From positions 1-8,739 of the forward strand of contig JAKADF010000112.1 of NCBI GenBank assembly GCA_021820805.1: a stretch of DNA of 8,739 nt, written 5' to 3'. Origin of the DNA: Bacillota bacterium (GTDB lineage: Bacteria > Bacillota > Bacilli > Alicyclobacillales > Alicyclobacillaceae). Numbering within the stretch: the stretch's first letter is position 1; each line of letters begins with the position of its first letter. Shown piece by piece: positions 192 through 8,644 of the stretch. The notes under the pieces are model-generated. The model worked only from the letters and a program-made list of their open reading frames with translations, searched no databases and was not told where the DNA came from. A program made the position numbers and the translations under genes.

Positions 192-1742
192 ATGGTCATG
201 TCGTCAATCATACTCATTGCCGTCGTGTTGACGATACTGTTGAGGCCTTGGAAAATAAATGAATCGATTCCTGCTATTGTTGGAGCCCTATTAGTTCTTG
301 CACTAGGTATAGTGAATTTATCTGATTTAAAAGTAGTATCAAATGCTGTGTCCGGTGCAGCAATTACGATTATATCGACAATCATCATGTCATCTGTTTT
401 GGACAAAGCGGGCTTTTTCCGGTGGGCAGCAATTCAGGTTGCGAGAAAAGCAGGAGGTAACGGGAGAAAACTGTTCATTTTAACTTTGTTGCTTAGTTTC
501 CTTATGACGATGTTTTTCAATAATGACGGAAGTATTCTCATTACGACGCCAATTATCCTACAAATTATGAGTCGATTACAGTTCAACAAAAAAGAAGCAT
601 TTCCGTATTTGATTGGGGGGGCGCTAATCGCATCCGCTTCAAGTGCACCGATTGGCGTAAGCAATTTGGCAAATTTAATAGCGCTTCGTATTGTAGGTTT
701 AAATTTGAATACATATGCGGCACTCATGTTCGTACCATCAATAATTGGTATTATCGTTTGTGGTGATTTGTTGTTTCTCCTATTTCGTAAGGTCATACCA
801 GAGCATTACGATATCAAACTCTTAAATCAAACTTCAAGTGAAAAGTTTTATATTGAGGGTTCACTACGCGGGCCATTTGAAGTTCCAAGGCCTGAACCCC
901 TTGGAAAGCCAAAGCTTGTGCCTCATGAGGGCCCTAAGCATGTGCTGCACGAAGGCCCAAAGCCTGGACCCCCTAGAGGCCTGAAACCCGGCCCTCTTGG
1001 GGGCCCAAAGCCTGTGCCGCACGAAGCTTTAAAGCCTTGTCCACCGCCTCCACTCCCAAAGAAAACTTTGGATAAAGAGCAAACAGCCACTCAGGAAGAG
1101 TCGAAGATTGACCGTCCTTTGTTCATATTTGGTATTTCAGTCGTTGTTATAGTTAGAATTGGATTTTTTATCGGTGCTTATTTCGGTATACCGGTAGAGT
1201 TTATTGCCATTACTGGTGCGCTGTGCCTATTGCTGTTTTATGGGATTAGACAGCCAACTGGTGTTGTTAGCATTATTCGCCAAGCACCATGGTACATTGT
1301 AGTTTTTGCCTTTGGTATGTACGCAGTAGTGTACGGGTTCCATATGTCAGGTGGTACCGAGTTGTTCAAAGATATTGTCCAGTTTGGCGCATCACACGGT
1401 CTGTTGGCCTCGCTTTTGGTTACAGGAATACTACTCACAGTTATGTCTTGCTTAATGAACAATTTACCATCAGTAATGATAGGAACAATTGTACTTACTG
1501 GTGTGAATTTGAGCCCGCATGTTTTACAATTGTCGTATTTAGCAAATGTTCTTGGTAGCGATATCGGGTCGCTTTTACTCCCAATCGGAACTTTAGCCTC
1601 ACTGCTTTGGTTTCATATAGTACGGCAACAAATGAGCTTTACATGGCTTGACTATATGAAAGTTTCGTTTGTAGTTATACCACCCAGTTTGTTGATATCC
1701 ATTTTGGCGTTATATGAATGGGGGAACTTGATCATTAAATAA
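192..1742 (+). CDS. ArsB/NhaD-type membrane permease with a proline-rich octapeptide-repeat loop
   Basis: A 516-residue integral membrane protein of the ArsB branch of the ion transporter superfamily. Characterised ArsB proteins expel arsenite or antimonite from the cytoplasm. Visible signatures are the NNDG motif (residues 110-113) followed by a helix ending in a TTPI motif, and the matching second-half NNLPS motif (423-427). A late NVLGSD...LLPIGTLASLLW-like stretch closely resembles the end of classical ArsB. ArsB proteins are usually about 430 residues; the excess of about 85 lies between the two six-helix halves, at residues about 215-300, and includes seven Pro/Lys/Gly-rich octapeptides. 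ATG 192 is supported by GGAGGT at 180-185. No arsR, arsC or arsA gene is within view, so the substrate is not settled; a different anion or a Na+/H+ role is possible. It is convergent with the coat-protein gene downstream. Confidence 0.92.
   Translation: MVMSSIILIAVVLTILLRPWKINESIPAIVGALLVLALGIVNLSDLKVVSNAVSGAAITIISTIIMSSVLDKAGFFRWAAIQVARKAGGNGRKLFILTLLLSFLMTMFFNNDGSILITTPIILQIMSRLQFNKKEAFPYLIGGALIASASSAPIGVSNLANLIALRIVGLNLNTYAALMFVPSIIGIIVCGDLLFLLFRKVIPEHYDIKLLNQTSSEKFYIEGSLRGPFEVPRPEPLGKPKLVPHEGPKHVLHEGPKPGPPRGLKPGPLGGPKPVPHEALKPCPPPPLPKKTLDKEQTATQEESKIDRPLFIFGISVVVIVRIGFFIGAYFGIPVEFIAITGALCLLLFYGIRQPTGVVSIIRQAPWYIVVFAFGMYAVVYGFHMSGGTELFKDIVQFGASHGLLASLLVTGILLTVMSCLMNNLPSVMIGTIVLTGVNLSPHVLQLSYLANVLGSDIGSLLLPIGTLASLLWFHIVRQQMSFTWLDYMKVSFVVIPPSLLISILALYEWGNLIIK
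882..1049 (+). repeat. Seven in-frame 24-bp repeats (octapeptide G-P-K-P-x-P-x-x) in the ArsB-like gene
   Basis: Seven consecutive 24-base units encode residues 231-286: VPRPEPLG, KPKLVPHE, GPKHVLHE, GPKPGPPR, GLKPGPLG, GPKPVPHE and ALKPCPPP. Units 2, 3 and 6 end in HE. Units 3 to 6 share the nucleotide pattern GGCC(C/T)(N)AA(G/A) at their start. The units are clearly more GC-rich (about 58 to 71 percent in two counted by hand) than the surrounding AT-rich gene, which fits local repeat expansion. The array lies in the predicted cytoplasmic loop between the two transporter halves and is followed by a Pro-rich and charged linker before the seventh helix. Confidence 0.85.
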
Positions 1743-1993: not shown

Positions 1994-2314
1994 CTAATGC
2001 CCAGTAGACCTGTGCCCAGAAGACTTATGCCCAGAAGACCTGTGCCCAGAAGACTTATGCCCAGAAGACTTGTGTCCAGAAGACTTGTGTCCAGAAGACT
2101 TGTGCCCGGTAGACTTGTGTCCAGAAGACTTGTGCCCAGTAGACTTGTGTCCAGTAGACTTATGCCCGTGAGACTTGTGCCCGTGAGACTTGTGTCCGTG
2201 GGACTTCTTCAAATCTTTTTCAACGGGATCCCGCCTCATAAACATTTCTTTAAGTTCTGGGTCCACAACTTCTTCAACAATATGGCGAATTTCTTCCTGT
2301 GTTGTAACGCTCAT
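1994..2314 (-). CDS. CotG-like Ser/Gly/His/Lys pentapeptide-repeat protein, putative spore-coat protein and CotH substrate
   Basis: A 106-residue protein in two parts. Residues 1-37 are charged, without repeats, and look helical (TQEEIRHIVEEV, then DPELKEMF). Residues 38-106 are fourteen pentapeptides S-(S/T/H)-G-H-(K/R), the last lacking its basic residue. The repeats hold 17 His and about 25 Ser/Thr and end directly at the stop codon. The start at 2314 is supported by AGGAAGAGGTG (complement of 2320-2330), five bases upstream. The gene is divergent from cotH with a 242-base gap, as cotG is from cotH in B. subtilis. B. subtilis CotG also has a short head and a long array of Ser/Lys-rich repeats that CotH phosphorylates. 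By arrangement and composition this is likely the functional counterpart, but the repeat sequence differs and I infer no direct homology. His-rich metal binding is an alternative or additional role. Confidence 0.82.
   Translation of the reverse strand: MSVTTQEEIRHIVEEVVDPELKEMFMRRDPVEKDLKKSHGHKSHGHKSHGHKSTGHKSTGHKSSGHKSTGHKSSGHKSSGHKSSGHKSSGHRSSGHKSSGHRSTGH
1997..2203 (-). repeat. Tandem 15-bp repeats, 14 units
   Basis: Fourteen direct 15-base units, the last three bases short, encode the pentapeptide array of the CotG-like protein. A typical unit on the minus strand is TCTTCTGGACACAAG. Reading from the start-proximal end, the units are three SHGHK, two STGHK, one SSGHK, one STGHK, then SSGHK/SSGHR types, with a final STGH. 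The ordered change along the array suggests growth by local duplication. The periodicity keeps other frames open, which produces spurious reading frames on both strands. Confidence 0.95.
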
Positions 2315-2401
2315 TTGTGCACCTCTTCCTTTGTTTGTATCAATCTAAGAACGCTACAAATACCATTAAAAAACCGAATTAAGAACATAAGCCTCCTCAC
2401 G

Positions 2402-2423
2402 ATGTGGATTTTCACATACAATA
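2402..2423 (+). promoter_or_regulatory. Possible sporulation-type promoter element and small dyad upstream of cotH
   Basis: CATACAATA at 2415-2423 matches the -10 pattern of mother-cell sigma factors (sigma-K CATANNNTA; it also contains sigma-E-like CATACAAT). It overlaps a perfect dyad, ATGTG-GATTTT-CACAT, at 2402-2417. The expected -35 is not convincing: the nearest AC (2399-2400) is only 14 bases from the -10, shorter than the usual sigma-K spacing. It lies about 130 bases before the cotH start. A mother-cell promoter is expected for cotH, but this assignment is tentative. Confidence 0.3.
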
Positions 2424-2556
2424 CGATGAAGTTTTTAAAATTGCGTGTGTTTTGGTCCGGCATAAGAAAAAATGGATAAATGCCGTCGGAATGCTCCCTC
2501 GCTGCCTGCCATGAACGCGATATTATACGGTGATTTGTAACAAAGGGGTGACAGTG

Positions 2557-3657
2557 ATGACCGAGTCCTCGCCTAATAAAGTTGAAATATACTCCTTTTT
2601 TATCCATCCAAATCATGTGCAAGAACTTAACAGTGACATATGGTGTGAGGATACTGTCCCTGCCCAGTTGAAAGTAGGAAAATTACGCTATTTTGTTGAG
2701 TTGGCATATCGTGGCTCTCATATAAGAAAGTTGCCAAAGAAGTCATACCGAGTAATTTTTAAGCAGCCCCGCACATTTCATTGTGCAAGGGAAATTCATG
2801 TAAACGCTGAATATTACGATCCGTCTATAATGCGCTCTAAATTGTCATTCGATTTTTTTCGCGAGCTTGGCGTATTGTCTCCAGATTGCTTTTACTGTCT
2901 CGTAAAAATAAATGGGGTATCACAGGGAGTTTATCTACAGTTGGAGTCGGTTGATGAGTTATTTTTTCAAAAAAGAGGATTGATGTGCAGAAGTATTTAC
3001 TATGCAGTCAACGACAATGCAAACTTTTCGCTTATTAGCCCTATTCATGATGATGTTAAAAAAAGATTAGATTCAGGATATGAGTTAAAATTTGGTGATG
3101 AAAGTGAAACAGAGTTGCTGCGTAAATTTATTCTTCGCCTGAATACTGTTTCACGTGCTGATTTTGGCGAGTATATTCAGGAACAGTTAAATATAGAGGA
3201 ATATCTACATTGGTTAGCAGGCGTTGTGTGTACACAAAATTTTGATGCTTTTATTCAAAATTACGCACTTTATCGAAATGAACAAACGGGACGATATGGA
3301 ATAATACCATGGGATTATGATGCAACTTGGGGGAGAGACGTAAGAGGTAAGCGTTTGTCACACGATTATGTTCCAATCGAAGGGTATAATACACTCTCTG
3401 CTCGACTTCTAGATGTACCCAAATTTCGAAAAATGTATCGCACAATTATAGAGGAGATTTTGGAGACAACTTTTACAGTAGAGTATATTGAGCCTCAAGT
3501 TACACGTTTGTATGGATTGCTTAGGCCATATGTTAGTCGGGATCCTGTTGTTTCTGTAAATCTCCGTAAGTTTGAGGGTGAACCAGAAGTGATTTTAAAC
3601 TTTATTAAGAAGAGAAATCTTTATCTGAAAGAGCATTTGAATGATTTGTCTGTTTAG
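2557..3657 (+). CDS. cotH: Spore-coat protein kinase CotH
   Basis: A 366-residue CotH-family atypical protein kinase, close to the length of B. subtilis CotH (about 362). In B. subtilis it acts in the mother cell on the forming coat, phosphorylating CotB and CotG and steering outer-coat assembly. Family motifs are RGSHIR with the following KKSY (residues 52-64), REIHVNAEY (78-86) followed by DPS and MRSKLS, and NFDAF with D230. WDYDATWGRD has metal-site aspartates D253 and D255. D230 and D253 fall two residues from the B. subtilis positions I recall as catalytic (D228, D251), so the enzyme appears intact. ATG 2557 is preferred because AAAGGGGTGA sits five to six bases upstream; an in-frame GTG at 2530 would add nine residues but has no comparable site. 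It is divergent from the CotG-like gene and monocistronic, ended by the terminator at 3717-3740. Confidence 0.95.
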   Translation: MTESSPNKVEIYSFFIHPNHVQELNSDIWCEDTVPAQLKVGKLRYFVELAYRGSHIRKLPKKSYRVIFKQPRTFHCAREIHVNAEYYDPSIMRSKLSFDFFRELGVLSPDCFYCLVKINGVSQGVYLQLESVDELFFQKRGLMCRSIYYAVNDNANFSLISPIHDDVKKRLDSGYELKFGDESETELLRKFILRLNTVSRADFGEYIQEQLNIEEYLHWLAGVVCTQNFDAFIQNYALYRNEQTGRYGIIPWDYDATWGRDVRGKRLSHDYVPIEGYNTLSARLLDVPKFRKMYRTIIEEILETTFTVEYIEPQVTRLYGLLRPYVSRDPVVSVNLRKFEGEPEVILNFIKKRNLYLKEHLNDLSV

Positions 3658-3716: not shown

Positions 3717-3740
3717 AGCGTCCGAAAGGACGCTTTTTTT
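3717..3740 (+). terminator. Intrinsic terminator of cotH
   Basis: A perfect 7-bp stem, AGCGTCC (3717-3723) and GGACGCT (3728-3734), with a stable GAAA tetraloop and a run of seven T ending at 3740. It lies about 60 bases after the cotH stop codon. Confidence 0.95.
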
Positions 3741-4184: not shown

Positions 4185-5450
4185 TTAGTCAAATTGCCGT
4201 ATCGATGGAACCATTAGGACAGCGAATGTAACTAAAAGGATGAAAATGGCATCAAGAGCAATTGTTGCAATACCTCCAACTTTCATGGCTAACCAGCCTG
4301 TCAATATGTTTCCAACGGGTAGAAGTGCAAAAGAGCCAAACATATCTAAGCTGGCAACCCGTCCAAATGCATCCTTTGCGACCAACTCTTGAAGGCTCCC
4401 TTCCCAAGTTAACCCGAACATCATAATACAAGCACTAGATGCTGCTGTAACGACCATTAGCAAAAATGGTGAATGAACGAATACCAGGGCGAGCCCAGCA
4501 ATCCCACTGCCAGCTACGCCTGCATAAGCAATCAATCCTCTCTTGTGCCATTGTTTTCGTCGCCCGTATACTAATGCGCACACAATGGCTCCAATGCCTG
4601 ATGCGCTGCTGACTAGGCCATAAAGGGCCGCAGATAATCCAAGATGAACTTTAATCAACCAAGGCAAAAGTATTGTGCTAATTCCACTGCTGGCAATGTT
4701 GATGAAGGCGAAGGCGATAATCGTGATCCATAACCACTGATGTTTTCGCAGTTCTTGAAAGCCGCCCGTGAGTTCGTGTAAAAAGCCGAGCAGGGCACCC
4801 GAAGTTTTTAATGAGGTTCGCTCTGGTGCACCCAGGTGGAGGAAAGCAAGGCTTGAGACTGAAACGAAAAGTGTCAGTGCATCTATGGCAAACCCTGCTG
4901 CTACAGTAGCAAGCCCGATGGCGGCACCGCCGATAGCAGGCCCGAGCAGGCGTGCGGCCTGTTGACTCACTTGTGTAAGTCCATTAGCTCTATTACGAAT
5001 ATCAGGTGTAAATACCTCTGCGCGAGTTGCTGAGTATGCTGGCTGAAACAGGGCGTCCATTGAGCCAAATAATAGTACAAATGTATAGAGAAGTGGAACT
5101 GTTAACTGATGTTCCTTCGCGAGTACTGAAAGCCCTATTACAAGTGTGCAGCGGAAACTGTCAGTAATCATCATAACCTTAGACCGAGATACACGGTCTA
5201 CGAGAATTCCTGTAAACGGTAGCAGCAAGACTTGAGGCAACATCAAAAGGCCCATGACAAAACCCATCTGTAAAGTAGATTGGCCCATCGAATAAACGGT
5301 AAGCGGAAGCGCAACCCATAGAATTGCATCGCCAAATTGAGAAAAAGTTTGTCCAAGCCACAGAGCTGTAAAACTCCGTGATTTAAGCAGCTTTGAAAAC
5401 GAAATATTTTCGGCTTTTACACTTGTGCTTGTTGAGAGTGACGGCGGCAT
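4185..5450 (-). CDS. MFS transporter, probable drug/metabolite exporter
   Basis: A 421-residue major facilitator superfamily protein of the 12-helix exporter type (MFS_3 or MFS_1-like, the kind that includes macrolide and siderophore exporters). The first helix region reads FTALWLGQTFSQFGDAILW. The conserved loop 2-3 motif GILVDRVSRSK (residues 81-91) has the expected Asp and Arg residues. Two six-helix halves are separated by a hydrophilic loop around residues 210-235. The start at 5450 is chosen because AAGGGAGA lies seven bases upstream and family proteins begin close to the first helix. An in-frame ATG at 5495 has GGAG five bases upstream and would add 15 residues, so it remains possible. 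It is divergent from rmuC. The substrate cannot be told from sequence. Confidence 0.92.
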   Translation of the reverse strand: MPPSLSTSTSVKAENISFSKLLKSRSFTALWLGQTFSQFGDAILWVALPLTVYSMGQSTLQMGFVMGLLMLPQVLLLPFTGILVDRVSRSKVMMITDSFRCTLVIGLSVLAKEHQLTVPLLYTFVLLFGSMDALFQPAYSATRAEVFTPDIRNRANGLTQVSQQAARLLGPAIGGAAIGLATVAAGFAIDALTLFVSVSSLAFLHLGAPERTSLKTSGALLGFLHELTGGFQELRKHQWLWITIIAFAFINIASSGISTILLPWLIKVHLGLSAALYGLVSSASGIGAIVCALVYGRRKQWHKRGLIAYAGVAGSGIAGLALVFVHSPFLLMVVTAASSACIMMFGLTWEGSLQELVAKDAFGRVASLDMFGSFALLPVGNILTGWLAMKVGGIATIALDAIFILLVTFAVLMVPSIRQFD

Positions 5451-5473
5451 TCTAATATCTCCCTTGCTGACCT

Positions 5474-5523
5474 GCGAGTATATCCAGACGAGCATATTTG
5501 CTCCAGATTACGGCGAGTATATC
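5474..5523. repeat. Direct repeat GCGAGTATATC in the MFS leader
   Basis: Two exact 11-base copies, at 5474-5484 and 5513-5523, start 39 bases apart between the MFS start and its putative promoter. The distal copy overlaps the proposed -10. They could be binding sites for a regulator or a trace of a small duplication. Confidence 0.4.
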
Positions 5524-5684: not shown

Positions 5685-7025
5685 ATGACCGATATATTAC
5701 TTGGCGTTGTTGCTGTCTTTCAAGTGATTATACTAATATCACTTATGAATAAAAGGTCTTCCACGCCATTGTTTCTGCGTGCACTCGAACAAATAAAAAA
5801 AGATTTAATTGTATCTTTCCAAACGGAGATTAAGCGTCTTCGTGAAGATGACATGCAGCAATCGAAACTTGCGCGTGAGGAGTTATCCAACAATTTCAGC
5901 CGTCAATTTACTCAAATTTCGCAAGTTTTAACGCAAAGCTTCTCCACACAGAACACTCAGCACAAGGCGTTATTTGATGCTTTTTCTTTGCAGTTAACCA
6001 CTTTGACCGAAATGAACGAAAGAAAACTCGAGCGGGTGCGAAGCGTTGTGGAAGAACGGCTTTCTAAAATGCAGGAAGATAATACAAAGAAATTAGAGCA
6101 AATGCGTCAAACGGTTGATGAAAAACTGAACGCCACTCTAGAAAAACGGCTTGCAGAATCGTTTAAGCAAGTCAGTGAACGTCTTGAAGCTGTACATAAG
6201 GGACTTGGTGAAATGCAGTCACTTGCCGGAAGCGTCGGTGATCTTAAGAGAGTCCTGACCAATGTGAAAACTCGCGGTACGTTTGGTGAAGTACAGTTAG
6301 AAATGTTGCTTGAACAACTCCTGTCGCCTGAACAATATGAGAAGAATGCCACGACCAAAAAAGGGTCTAGTGATCGTGTTGAATTTGCCATTAAACTTCC
6401 GGGACAAGAAGATGCCGCAAAAATTGTTTACCTCCCAATTGATTGTAAGTTTCCGATTGAAGATTACCAACGAATGCTGGATGCACAGGATAACGTAGAT
6501 GCAGGTGCGTTCAATGAAGCTTCTAAAGCCTTATTCAACCGTATAAAGACAGAGGCGAAGTCCATCTCCACCAAATACATTGACCCGCCGAATACTACCG
6601 ATTTTGCAATTATGTATTTGCCGATTGAGGGGTTGTTTGCGGAAGTTCTCCGAAATTCAGGATTGATGGAGTCAATCCAGCGGGATTATCGAGTCATTAT
6701 TTCTGGACCTACAACATTAACAGCTCTTTTAAACAGTTTGCAGATGGGCTTTCGAACACTTGCAATTCAAAAGCGATCAAGTGAGGTATGGGAACTTCTT
6801 GGAGCTATCAAAACACAGTTTGGAACGTTCGGAGATTTATTGCAAAAGACACAAAAGAAGCTTCGGGAAGCAAGCAATTCAATTGACGCTGCTGCGAGGA
6901 AATCACGTACTATTGAACGAAAGTTACGTACAGTGGAGGAATTGCCAACATCTGATGCAGAACTGTTACTTCCAGAGCTTTCTGAATCCGATGACCAAGA
7001 TAGTCATTTCGAAGAGAGTGTTTAG
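5685..7025 (+). CDS. rmuC: DNA recombination protein RmuC
   Basis: A 446-residue RmuC-family protein. The first 20 residues form one hydrophobic anchor helix. Residues about 30-170 are a long charged coiled coil rich in Lys, Glu and Gln. Residues about 175-420 are the RmuC nuclease-like domain of the PD-(D/E)XK fold. Candidate active-site residues are E202 in GTFGEVQLE and D253 with K255 in LPIDCKFP. The conserved GPTTLTALLNSLQMGFRTL stretch follows. In E. coli RmuC limits recombination at short inverted repeats and has been proposed to be a nuclease. The C-terminal 25 residues are acidic and variable. GGAGGT at 5673-5678 supports ATG 5685. It is divergent from the MFS gene and probably a single gene or head of a loose unit with the antiporter, 143 bases downstream. 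Confidence 0.96.
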   Translation: MTDILLGVVAVFQVIILISLMNKRSSTPLFLRALEQIKKDLIVSFQTEIKRLREDDMQQSKLAREELSNNFSRQFTQISQVLTQSFSTQNTQHKALFDAFSLQLTTLTEMNERKLERVRSVVEERLSKMQEDNTKKLEQMRQTVDEKLNATLEKRLAESFKQVSERLEAVHKGLGEMQSLAGSVGDLKRVLTNVKTRGTFGEVQLEMLLEQLLSPEQYEKNATTKKGSSDRVEFAIKLPGQEDAAKIVYLPIDCKFPIEDYQRMLDAQDNVDAGAFNEASKALFNRIKTEAKSISTKYIDPPNTTDFAIMYLPIEGLFAEVLRNSGLMESIQRDYRVIISGPTTLTALLNSLQMGFRTLAIQKRSSEVWELLGAIKTQFGTFGDLLQKTQKKLREASNSIDAAARKSRTIERKLRTVEELPTSDAELLLPELSESDDQDSHFEESV

Positions 7026-7168: not shown

Positions 7169-8644
7169 GTGGAATCGATTTTGCTCTTGTTGTCTGTGAT
7201 ACTCTTTGCCGGTGTATGGTCGGCGCGTGTTGGGAGCAAGATAGGATTCCCTGTTTTAATCGGGTTCGTTGCAATTGGTGTTTTTTTAGGCCAAGGGGGT
7301 TTAGGATTAACTCCGCACGTGCCGCTTTCAACGGCAAAATCTGTTGGCTATATTGCTCTTATTTTGATTCTCTTTGAGGGCGGTTTGCATACTTCATTAA
7401 CAAGCATTCGTAAAGCGTGGGTTCCTGCTCTTTCGTTAGCAACTATAGGTGTATTGATTAGTTCCCTCATTATGTCTATTCTTGCATTCTTCCTGTTAGG
7501 GCTGCCTGTATACCCAGCGGCTCTGTTTGGGGTTGCAGTAAGTTCTACTGATGCAGCATCGGTTTTTTCTATACTCGGCGGACAGTCTCTTCGCAAACGA
7601 TTGGTCAATGTACTTGAAGTTGAATCAGGTACAAATGATCCGATGGCATTTTTTTTGACACTGGTTTTGATTAATTGGTCGGTAAGTGGTATTGGTCCAA
7701 TTTGGCATGCCGCTTGGTACGTTATCGGTACTTTTGCTTTACAGATGTTTGTCGGTTTGGCTGTGGGAATAGGTACAGGATATTTAGGTTCTTTTACAAA
7801 CCAGCGTATCAAGTTGGACACAGGCGGCCTGTATCCCACCTTGTCGTTAGCATTTGCCATTTTGTCTTATGCGATTGCAGTTTTATTCCATGGGAGTGGT
7901 TTTCTTTCTGTCTACGCTGCCTCGGTTGTAATAGGTAATCGGAGACTTGAACACAGGTACAGCATCATGCGCTTTCACGAAGGACTCTCTTGGACGGTTC
8001 ACATCTTAATGTTCGTTGTGCTTGGGCTTCAATTGGTACCCGGAAGGCTGGTTCAGGTTTTGTTGCCAGGCTTAGGGTTAGCAGTTGGGGTACTTTTCAT
8101 CGCTAGGCCAGTTTCGGTCTGGTTATCAACTCTCGGTATGGGTTTTACTTGGAAAGAGAAGCATTTCTTGTCATGGGCGGGACTTCGCGGCGCAGTTCCT
8201 ATCGTACTCGTTCTAACTGCCATACTCGCACCAGGCTATACTCCAAATACGATGATGGATGCAGTTTTCTTTGTGGTTATCGCATCCACACTCGTTCAGG
8301 GATTAACAGTAAAACCTTTTGCAAAAAAACTTGACCTTTTTGATCCGTCGCCTTCAGAAGGATTGCTCGAACTCGTTGCTATTGCACGTGAAAATGCAGT
8401 TATACTGCCAGTGGAAATTACAGATGAATCTCGCTTAATAGACAGAAAAATGGTGGATATTTCATTCCCGCAAAATACCCTCTGTTACGCAATTGTAAGG
8501 GACAATAAAGTGATAGTGCCTCGGGGTGCTACCCGTCTGCAAGCTTCTGATCACTTACTCGTACTGTCGGATCGTCGACATATTGACGACCTTCGGATTT
8601 TGCTTAAAGGGGAATTAGTTGGGGAGCCTTCATTTCTTCCGTAA
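7169..8644 (+). CDS. K+/H+ antiporter of the NhaP2/CvrA type with RCK_C domain
   Basis: A 491-residue cation/proton antiporter of the CPA1 family. Residues about 1-385 form the membrane Na_H_Exchanger domain. The conserved transport-site motifs are AVSSTDAASVFS with D128 and EVESGTNDPMA with E152, N156 and D157. The ESGTNDPMA form is typical of proteins annotated as potassium/proton antiporters (V. cholerae NhaP2, E. coli CvrA). A TrkA_C/RCK_C domain at about 400-485 is likely to sense a ligand or nucleotide. E. coli CvrA is longer (about 578 residues), and its extra C-terminal part is absent here. The start is GTG 7169, with GGGGG at 7158-7162 six bases upstream. The expected role is export of K+ (or Na+) in exchange for protons at the cell membrane, for pH or volume control. 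The cation cannot be fixed from sequence. Confidence 0.92.
   Translation: MESILLLLSVILFAGVWSARVGSKIGFPVLIGFVAIGVFLGQGGLGLTPHVPLSTAKSVGYIALILILFEGGLHTSLTSIRKAWVPALSLATIGVLISSLIMSILAFFLLGLPVYPAALFGVAVSSTDAASVFSILGGQSLRKRLVNVLEVESGTNDPMAFFLTLVLINWSVSGIGPIWHAAWYVIGTFALQMFVGLAVGIGTGYLGSFTNQRIKLDTGGLYPTLSLAFAILSYAIAVLFHGSGFLSVYAASVVIGNRRLEHRYSIMRFHEGLSWTVHILMFVVLGLQLVPGRLVQVLLPGLGLAVGVLFIARPVSVWLSTLGMGFTWKEKHFLSWAGLRGAVPIVLVLTAILAPGYTPNTMMDAVFFVVIASTLVQGLTVKPFAKKLDLFDPSPSEGLLELVAIARENAVILPVEITDESRLIDRKMVDISFPQNTLCYAIVRDNKVIVPRGATRLQASDHLLVLSDRRHIDDLRILLKGELVGEPSFLP

What the first reader, a model, noticed from the sequence alone, without database searches (positions are those of the whole stretch)
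1994..3657. Divergent CotH kinase and a new-type repeat substrate (CotG counterpart)
The sequence shows an intact CotH with catalytic aspartates next to a divergent gene whose product is two-thirds Ser/Thr-Gly-His-Lys pentapeptides. In B. subtilis CotH phosphorylates repeat-rich CotG, encoded in the same divergent place. The pentapeptide S-(S/T)-G-H-(K/R) is unlike the B. subtilis repeats I know, so this may be a distinct class of CotH substrate with up to about 25 acceptor residues. Conservation of arrangement despite different sequence would suggest that the kinase keeps a fast-evolving repeat partner nearby.
Basis: partly seen in the sequence, partly recalled or inferred. Interest (0 to 1): 0.75.

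Follow-up and report, generated by a model that had tools for sequence, protein, structure and literature searches.

The report
CotG-like repeat protein beside CotH kinase
A spore-forming bacterium known only from this short contig carries the usual pair of a spore-coat kinase (CotH) and, read in the opposite direction, a repeat-rich coat protein of the CotG type; its His-rich repeat spelling is unusual, but the arrangement and the family are already known.

Summary
CotH (best start 2557) is intact, with both catalytic Asp residues. Of 112 cotH loci, window included, 90 have such an N-terminus plus tandem repeats divergently upstream. Among 398 genomes of one class, strong N-terminal matches occur in 17 of 32 with a canonical cotH and 0 of 366 others; in all 17 the best match is divergent, 130-318 bp from cotH. 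But the idea is not new: papers of 2020 and 2022 describe CotG-like proteins with unrelated repeats in this place, and NCBIfam has a CotG/ExsB N-terminal model, though it misses this branch. KSxGH is one of many repeat spellings; Effusibacillus has KSSGKH, an Alicyclobacillus-order genome KSGGHEH. Phosphorylation by CotH is likely but untested. Verdict: a new, His-rich member of a known kind.

The parts
1994..2314 (-). CotG-like repeat protein, 106 aa
2207..2314 (-). Conserved N-terminal segment (36 aa), homologous to other cotH-divergent CotG-like proteins
   Evidence: 42.2 bits to a model built without it, best of 2000 shuffles 8.5; alignment A1
1997..2206 (-). 14 tandem pentapeptides K/R-S-(H/T/S)-G-H (15-bp units)
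2557..3657 (+). CotH atypical Ser/Thr kinase, 366 aa (GTG 2530 is the longer, less likely start)
   Evidence: PF08757 2.3e-83; 5jd9 7.5e-126; Asp228/Asp251 kept
2315..2556 (.). Divergent intergenic region; holds a sigma-K-like -10 (CATACAATA, consensus recalled) at 2415-2423(+), not beyond chance in number and with a poor -35 spacing
   Evidence: 7 matches in window, 4.9 expected; spacing read by eye
3717..3734 (+). Terminator-like hairpin with T-run after cotH, not beyond chance in number
   Evidence: 1 found, 1.7 expected in shuffles
192..1742 (+). ArsB-family permease, a recurrent cotH neighbour, here on the cotG side

Best explanation
A cotG-cotH pair of a spore former whose CotH groups with Alicyclobacillus dauci. 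The small protein is a CotG-family coat scaffold. Its conserved N-terminal segment probably docks to another coat protein or to CotH, and its basic, His-rich repeat tail, presumably disordered, is the multi-site acceptor for CotH. In each unit the invariant K/R-S presents a serine; phosphorylating only those 14 would turn the tail from about +14 to -14 at neutral pH (His uncharged), making it assembly-competent and stable in the outer coat, as reported for B. subtilis CotG. Shown: gene pair, homologous N-terminus, repeats, intact kinase residues, pairing across genera. Inferred: sporulation expression, phosphorylation, coat location, docking, charge-reversal role.
For: N-terminal homology independent of repeats; profile-profile match of this branch (7 rows, window included) to the Bacillus branch, 97% probability, E 5e-11. 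Of 112 cotH loci, window included, 90 have N-terminus plus repeats in the divergent place, 8 N-terminus only, 6 repeats only, 8 neither. Repeat ORFs in 63 of 71 loci there against 6 of 71 in a control stretch. In 398 genomes, 17 of 32 with canonical cotH against 0 of 366 without; Fisher 2e-21, or 2e-12 after removing the 8 genomes that supplied model rows. CotH residues kept. B. subtilis precedent: CotH phosphorylates CotG in its Ser/Lys/Arg repeats (PMC7821199, sections read), and cotG is divergent to cotH there (PMC4130616, passage).
Against: NF047410 does not call this protein. A first model of 41 mostly Bacillus-type N-termini gave it only 5.3 bits, E 4.3. No homologue of the protein by word search in 5.8 billion sequences. 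15 of 32 canonical-cotH genomes gave no strong N-terminal match with A1. No cotB among the window's identified genes. No convincing sigma-K promoter. Pfam sees nothing above cut-off. No evidence on expression or phosphorylation.
Confidence: 0.82

Rival explanations
1. The His-rich repeat tail is mainly a metal-binding or pH-sensing coat layer (17 His in 70 residues), and phosphorylation is secondary or absent.
For: His is 24% of the repeat region; other His-rich partners are those of G130 (L089, 32%), G203 (L117, 27%) and G410 (L118, 20%). The neighbour is an ArsB-family permease.
Against: Near partners such as those of Collibacillus (L084) and Tumebacillus (L091) have no His in the repeats, while Ser/Thr is present in nearly all repeat regions listed. 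ArsB neighbours also occur beside His-free partners (L057, L091).
Confidence: 0.1
2. The repeat protein is only a spacer scaffold whose charge matters little, and CotH's real substrates lie elsewhere in the genome.
For: In B. subtilis the CotG repeats act as a spacer and could be replaced by differently charged ones (PMC9765600 abstract); one cotH partner here (L113) has acidic repeats with no Lys/Arg.
Against: CotG is phosphorylated by CotH in vivo and in E. coli (PMC7821199); Ser/Thr stays high in repeats across genera.
Confidence: 0.06
3. The repeat ORF is a chance by-product of a DNA tandem array (an antisense ORF, 1967-2479, also runs open).
For: A 170-aa antisense ORF overlaps the array; one antisense frame has as many synonymous changes as the coding frame.
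Against: Homologous N-terminus outside the array; GAGGTG before its ATG; synonymous bias in the minus frame; the antisense ORF matches no Pfam family.
Confidence: 0.02

Closest known systems
Bacillus subtilis CotG/CotH (with CotB)
   Same: Divergent gene pair; kinase with the same two Asp; short N-terminus then basic Ser-rich tandem repeats
   Different: Repeat unit KSxGH (5 aa, Gly/His-rich) instead of Ser/Lys/Arg units of 5-7 residues; no C-terminal segment after the repeats; no cotB among the window's identified genes
NCBIfam NF047410 CotG_ExsB_Nterm
   Same: Same N-terminal pattern (I, V, L, F/Y-M/L, D/E-P)
   Different: The curated model does not call this protein or the Collibacillus, Effusibacillus and P. 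foliorum ones scanned, and finds no match in 8 genomes where alignment A1 does
   Same: M-R-(N/R)-(D/E)-P-V-E motif at the N-terminus, divergent to cotH; repeats KSSGKH and KGRHHS
   Different: Unit length 6, other spelling; CotH 54% identical
ExsB of the B. cereus group
   Same: CotG-like repeat protein, multiply phosphorylated (PMC7821199 passages)
   Different: Thr as acceptor; not compared by sequence here

Membership tests
CotH atypical kinase (PF08757) | Profile match over the whole domain | tested here: met
   E 2.3e-83, profile 1-322 of 322
CotH atypical kinase (PF08757) | Catalytic Asp228 and Asp251 (from PMC7821199) | tested here: met
   Aligned Asp in both places
CotH atypical kinase (PF08757) | Kinase activity on coat repeat proteins | not testable with these tools
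   needs an assay
CotG-like family | Chromosomal place: divergent to cotH | tested here: met
   compared with 111 other loci
CotG-like family | Modular build with tandem repeats, mostly positively charged | tested here: met
   14 units, 14 basic residues, no acidic ones in the array
CotG-like family | N-terminal homology to other members (not a feature of the published definition) | tested here: met
   42.2 bits, E 2.4e-11 with a model lacking it; hhalign 97% to the Bacillus branch; but 5.3 bits with the mostly Bacillus-type model
CotG-like family | CotH-dependent phosphorylation and coat location | not testable with these tools
   no wet-lab data for this organism
NCBIfam NF047410 CotG_ExsB_Nterm | Score at or over 28 bits | tested here: not met
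   no hit at E up to 1; so not filed under this model as it stands
B. subtilis CotG orthologue in the strict sense | SHKKSxxS-type repeats and a C-terminal segment | tested here: not met
   best repeat 3-mer cosine is 0.47 (Effusibacillus); no B. subtilis-group protein among its top eight; the protein ends with the array

The most novel reading that the evidence does not exclude
The divergent partner of CotH is one old family defined by a ~30-residue N-terminal docking segment kept from Bacillus to Paenibacillus, Alicyclobacillus-type bacteria and Desulfosporosinus, while the repeat tail is rewritten lineage by lineage under little more than the need to offer many Ser/Thr. In this lineage it has become a His-rich, pH- or metal-responsive tail whose state is set jointly by CotH phosphorylation and by acidity or metal.
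Probability: 0.2. Interest if true: 0.55.

Novelty: new member of a known kind. Interest (0 to 1): 0.33.

Why it matters
It ties CotG-like proteins of other genera, called non-homologous in the paper whose passages I read, to the CotG/ExsB N-terminal domain, and gives a simple handle (the N-terminus) for finding likely CotH substrates in spore formers. It also offers a short, regular pentapeptide substrate for asking what CotH recognises, since Ser beside Lys/Arg turns out not to be a strict rule.

Tried and rejected
Word-based protein searches with the repeat protein found nothing. No own genome is held. A first N-terminal model of 41 mostly Bacillus-type segments gave the window only 5.3 bits, E 4.3. 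An iterated model that was allowed to lengthen crept into the repeats and gave erratic window scores, from -0.3 to 29.6 bits; it was dropped for a fixed N-terminal model. A viral-contig scan had no confirmed relative. Rfam: no match at the gathering scores. Sigma-K-like and sigma-70 scans were not above chance. In one search the repeat-only rows L107 and L120 look like wrong-frame picks. Nine loci were left out before that count: eight redundant or partial ones (L081, L082, L083, L093, L094, L097, L114, L119) and L115, which holds only 124 bases upstream of its cotH and shows no repeat ORF. Two canonical-cotH genomes (G078, G377) gave no locus and were not inspected. In one search, before the unnamed-genome loci on the minus strand were turned round, some had been read on the wrong side; two CotB-like 'divergent' neighbours seen there (L086, L088) were downstream genes.

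Full report
WHAT IS THERE. The window is probably a whole metagenomic contig: its CotH is a singleton cluster on a contig of 8739 bases (P0001) and no genome is held for it. Its genes are an ArsB-family permease (192-1742, +), the repeat protein (1994-2314, -), CotH (2557-3657, +), an MFS transporter (4185-5495, -), RmuC (5685-7025, +) and a K+/H+ antiporter (7169-8644, +). CotH matches PF08757 end to end (E 2.3e-83) and the solved CotH 5jd9 (E 7.5e-126), and keeps the two Asp residues that B. subtilis CotH needs (roles from PMC7821199). Its nearest relatives are three unnamed database proteins of 63-70% identity, then Collibacillus ludicampi at 57%. In a 45-row tree it groups with those three and, next, Alicyclobacillus dauci (support 98/90).

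THE REPEAT PROTEIN. It has 106 residues: a 36-residue N-terminus (net charge -4) and 14 pentapeptides without a gap, K/R-S-(H/T/S)-G-H, with 12 Lys, 2 Arg, 21 Ser, 4 Thr, 17 His, 14 Gly and no acidic residue. The variable third place runs from His near the N-terminus to Ser/Thr further on. The array is not chance (score 51.4, highest of 30 shuffles 5.6). Differences between copies are more often synonymous in the coding frame than expected (14 of 26, expected 7.8; 7 of 1000 simulations reach it). This is weak support: one antisense frame scores 16 with three stop-making changes, distinct changes split 4 to 4, and tandem copies are not independent.

IS IT A COTG COUNTERPART? After leaving out nine (named in Tried and rejected), 112 loci remained, the window included. 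In 90, window among them, the divergent place upstream of cotH holds an ORF with both the family N-terminus and tandem repeats; in 8 the N-terminus only; in 6 repeats only (two look like wrong-frame picks); in 8 neither. For two of those 8 (L012, L045) an earlier, weak scan lists a CotG-like candidate downstream of cotH instead (E 0.018 and 2.3). The N-terminal counts are partly circular, since 41 and 12 segments from these loci made the two models. The repeat counts are not: repeat ORFs in 63 of 71 named loci with full flanks, against 6 of 71 for the stretch 1.7-4 kb upstream of cotH on either strand.

The window was not in either scoring model. The best of 2000 shuffles gets 8.5, the best ORF not in the divergent place 13.0. 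The two branches do match profile to profile (97%, E 5.2e-11, window in the first profile). The nearest N-termini by identity are those of G130 (54%), Collibacillus (50%) and A. dauci (47%).

CO-OCCURRENCE. Of 398 genomes drawn evenly from the class of G001 (the genome of Paenibacillus foliorum, L011), 32 have a canonical CotH (E at most 1e-100, a line I drew after seeing the list; G029 and G199 fall just short of it). A 22-row N-terminal alignment, window included, finds matches under 1e-5 in 17 genomes, all among those 32, none in the other 366 (Fisher 1.8e-21; 9 of 24 against 0 of 366 after removing the 8 genomes that gave model rows, 2.5e-12). The 1e-5 line was also drawn afterwards. In each of the 17 the best match is divergent and 130-318 bp from the cotH match (coordinates). 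At the looser limit of 0.01 there are 39 genomes; the other 22 have best matches of 7.7e-4 or worse, most of them in frames of over 300 residues, and I take them as chance. Three of the 17 (G071, G038, G165) have a second, weaker match away from cotH.

NCBIfam's own CotG/ExsB model finds 10 of the 398 over its cut-off, all with canonical cotH (10 of 32 against 0 of 366, Fisher 2.6e-12). Two of these (G017, G330) alignment A1 missed, while NF047410 lists no match for G001, G038, G055, G098, G130, G164, G185 and G372, which A1 finds. So 13 of 32 canonical-cotH genomes gave no strong match with either. Of these 13, five (G109, G120, G142, G184, G245) do have an N-terminus-plus-repeat ORF in the divergent place (two, G109 and G142, only at E about 0.01), G262 shows only a dubious repeat, five (G076, G113, G124, G146, G341) show neither, and two (G078, G377) were not inspected.

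HOW FAST THE REPEATS CHANGE. Among 89 proteins (3916 pairs), repeat 3-mer similarity (median cosine) falls from 0.78 for CotH pairs at 90% identity or more, to 0.64 at 80-90%, 0.35 at 70-80%, 0.04 at 60-70% and 0.00 below. Repeat spellings include RTSRN, SHKKS, GSKGS, TGKGTG, NSSGRK, GSGNRS, KSSGKH, KGRHHS and KSGGHEH. The window's KSSGH is closest to Effusibacillus KSSGKH (cosine 0.47). Ser/Thr beside Lys/Arg is a tendency only: 62 of 87 proteins above their shuffle mean; window 0.56 against 0.36 (7 of 300 shuffles reach it); L101 0.06 against 0.58. L113 has acidic repeats with no Lys or Arg.

MECHANISM. In B. subtilis CotH phosphorylates at least 13 Ser in the CotG repeats, CotG does not accumulate without active CotH, and CotG is seen as the main organiser of the outer coat (PMC7821199, sections 2.1 and Discussion read). 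[quoted passage not shown] That the N-terminus is the conserved part here fits this. By arithmetic, 14 phosphoserines would change the tail's charge from +14 to -14. Phosphorylation, docking, disorder and coat location remain inferred.

WHAT IS KNOWN. PMC9765600 states that most species have a CotG-like protein 'not homologous' to B. subtilis CotG but sharing chromosomal organisation, modular structure and repeats (passages). PMC7821199 says CotG-like proteins occur in nearly all spore formers that code for CotH (passages). PMC4130616 describes cotG as divergent to cotH, inside the long untranslated leader of cotH (passage). The underlying 2016 paper (Saggese et al.) is not held, so I do not know whether it noted the N-terminus. 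My searches listed no paper whose title or abstract start deals with CotG-like proteins of Alicyclobacillus-type bacteria, but the library lacks most subscription journals. NF047410 shows that NCBI knows the N-terminal domain; it does not reach this branch.

VERDICT. Observation confirmed. Interpretation right in kind, overstated in novelty: a new, His-rich member of the CotG-like family, plus a modest extension of the family's N-terminal domain.

Noticed in passing
window 192-1742 and L057, L090, L091, L092, L100, L101 and others: An ArsB-family permease lies near cotH in many genomes (hits in 18 of the 80 named loci and several unnamed ones; flanks often too short to tell). In five loci of the order of G038 it starts shortly downstream of cotH; in the window it sits on the cotG side.
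   Followed up: partly
window 909-1014: The ArsB-family permease (516 aa) has a Pro-rich tandem insert in its middle; complete relatives found are mostly 436-463 aa, two 495 and 499.
   Followed up: no
L113 (G142), divergent ORF starting 164 bp before the cotH match: The divergent neighbour of this cotH has acidic repeats (SGDDSGND type, no Lys/Arg) behind a weakly CotG-like N-terminus (E 0.01): possibly a scaffold that carries negative charge without phosphorylation.
   Followed up: partly
   Followed up: no
L057 (Desulfosporosinus metallidurans): CotH of Desulfosporosinus nests inside a Paenibacillus/Peribacillus clade (99/92) with its own divergent TGTGK-repeat protein and ArsB neighbours, which suggests transfer of the whole module between classes.
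   Followed up: partly
orders of G372, G130 and G038: cotH is patchy: matches at E up to 0.001 in 5 of 59, 2 of 15 and 8 of 14 genomes.
   Followed up: no
L117 and L118: Two genomes of the order of G372 with distant CotH have KSGGHEH-type His-rich repeats behind a different N-terminus (VREELQ.LW), perhaps a second or convergent partner family.
   Followed up: partly
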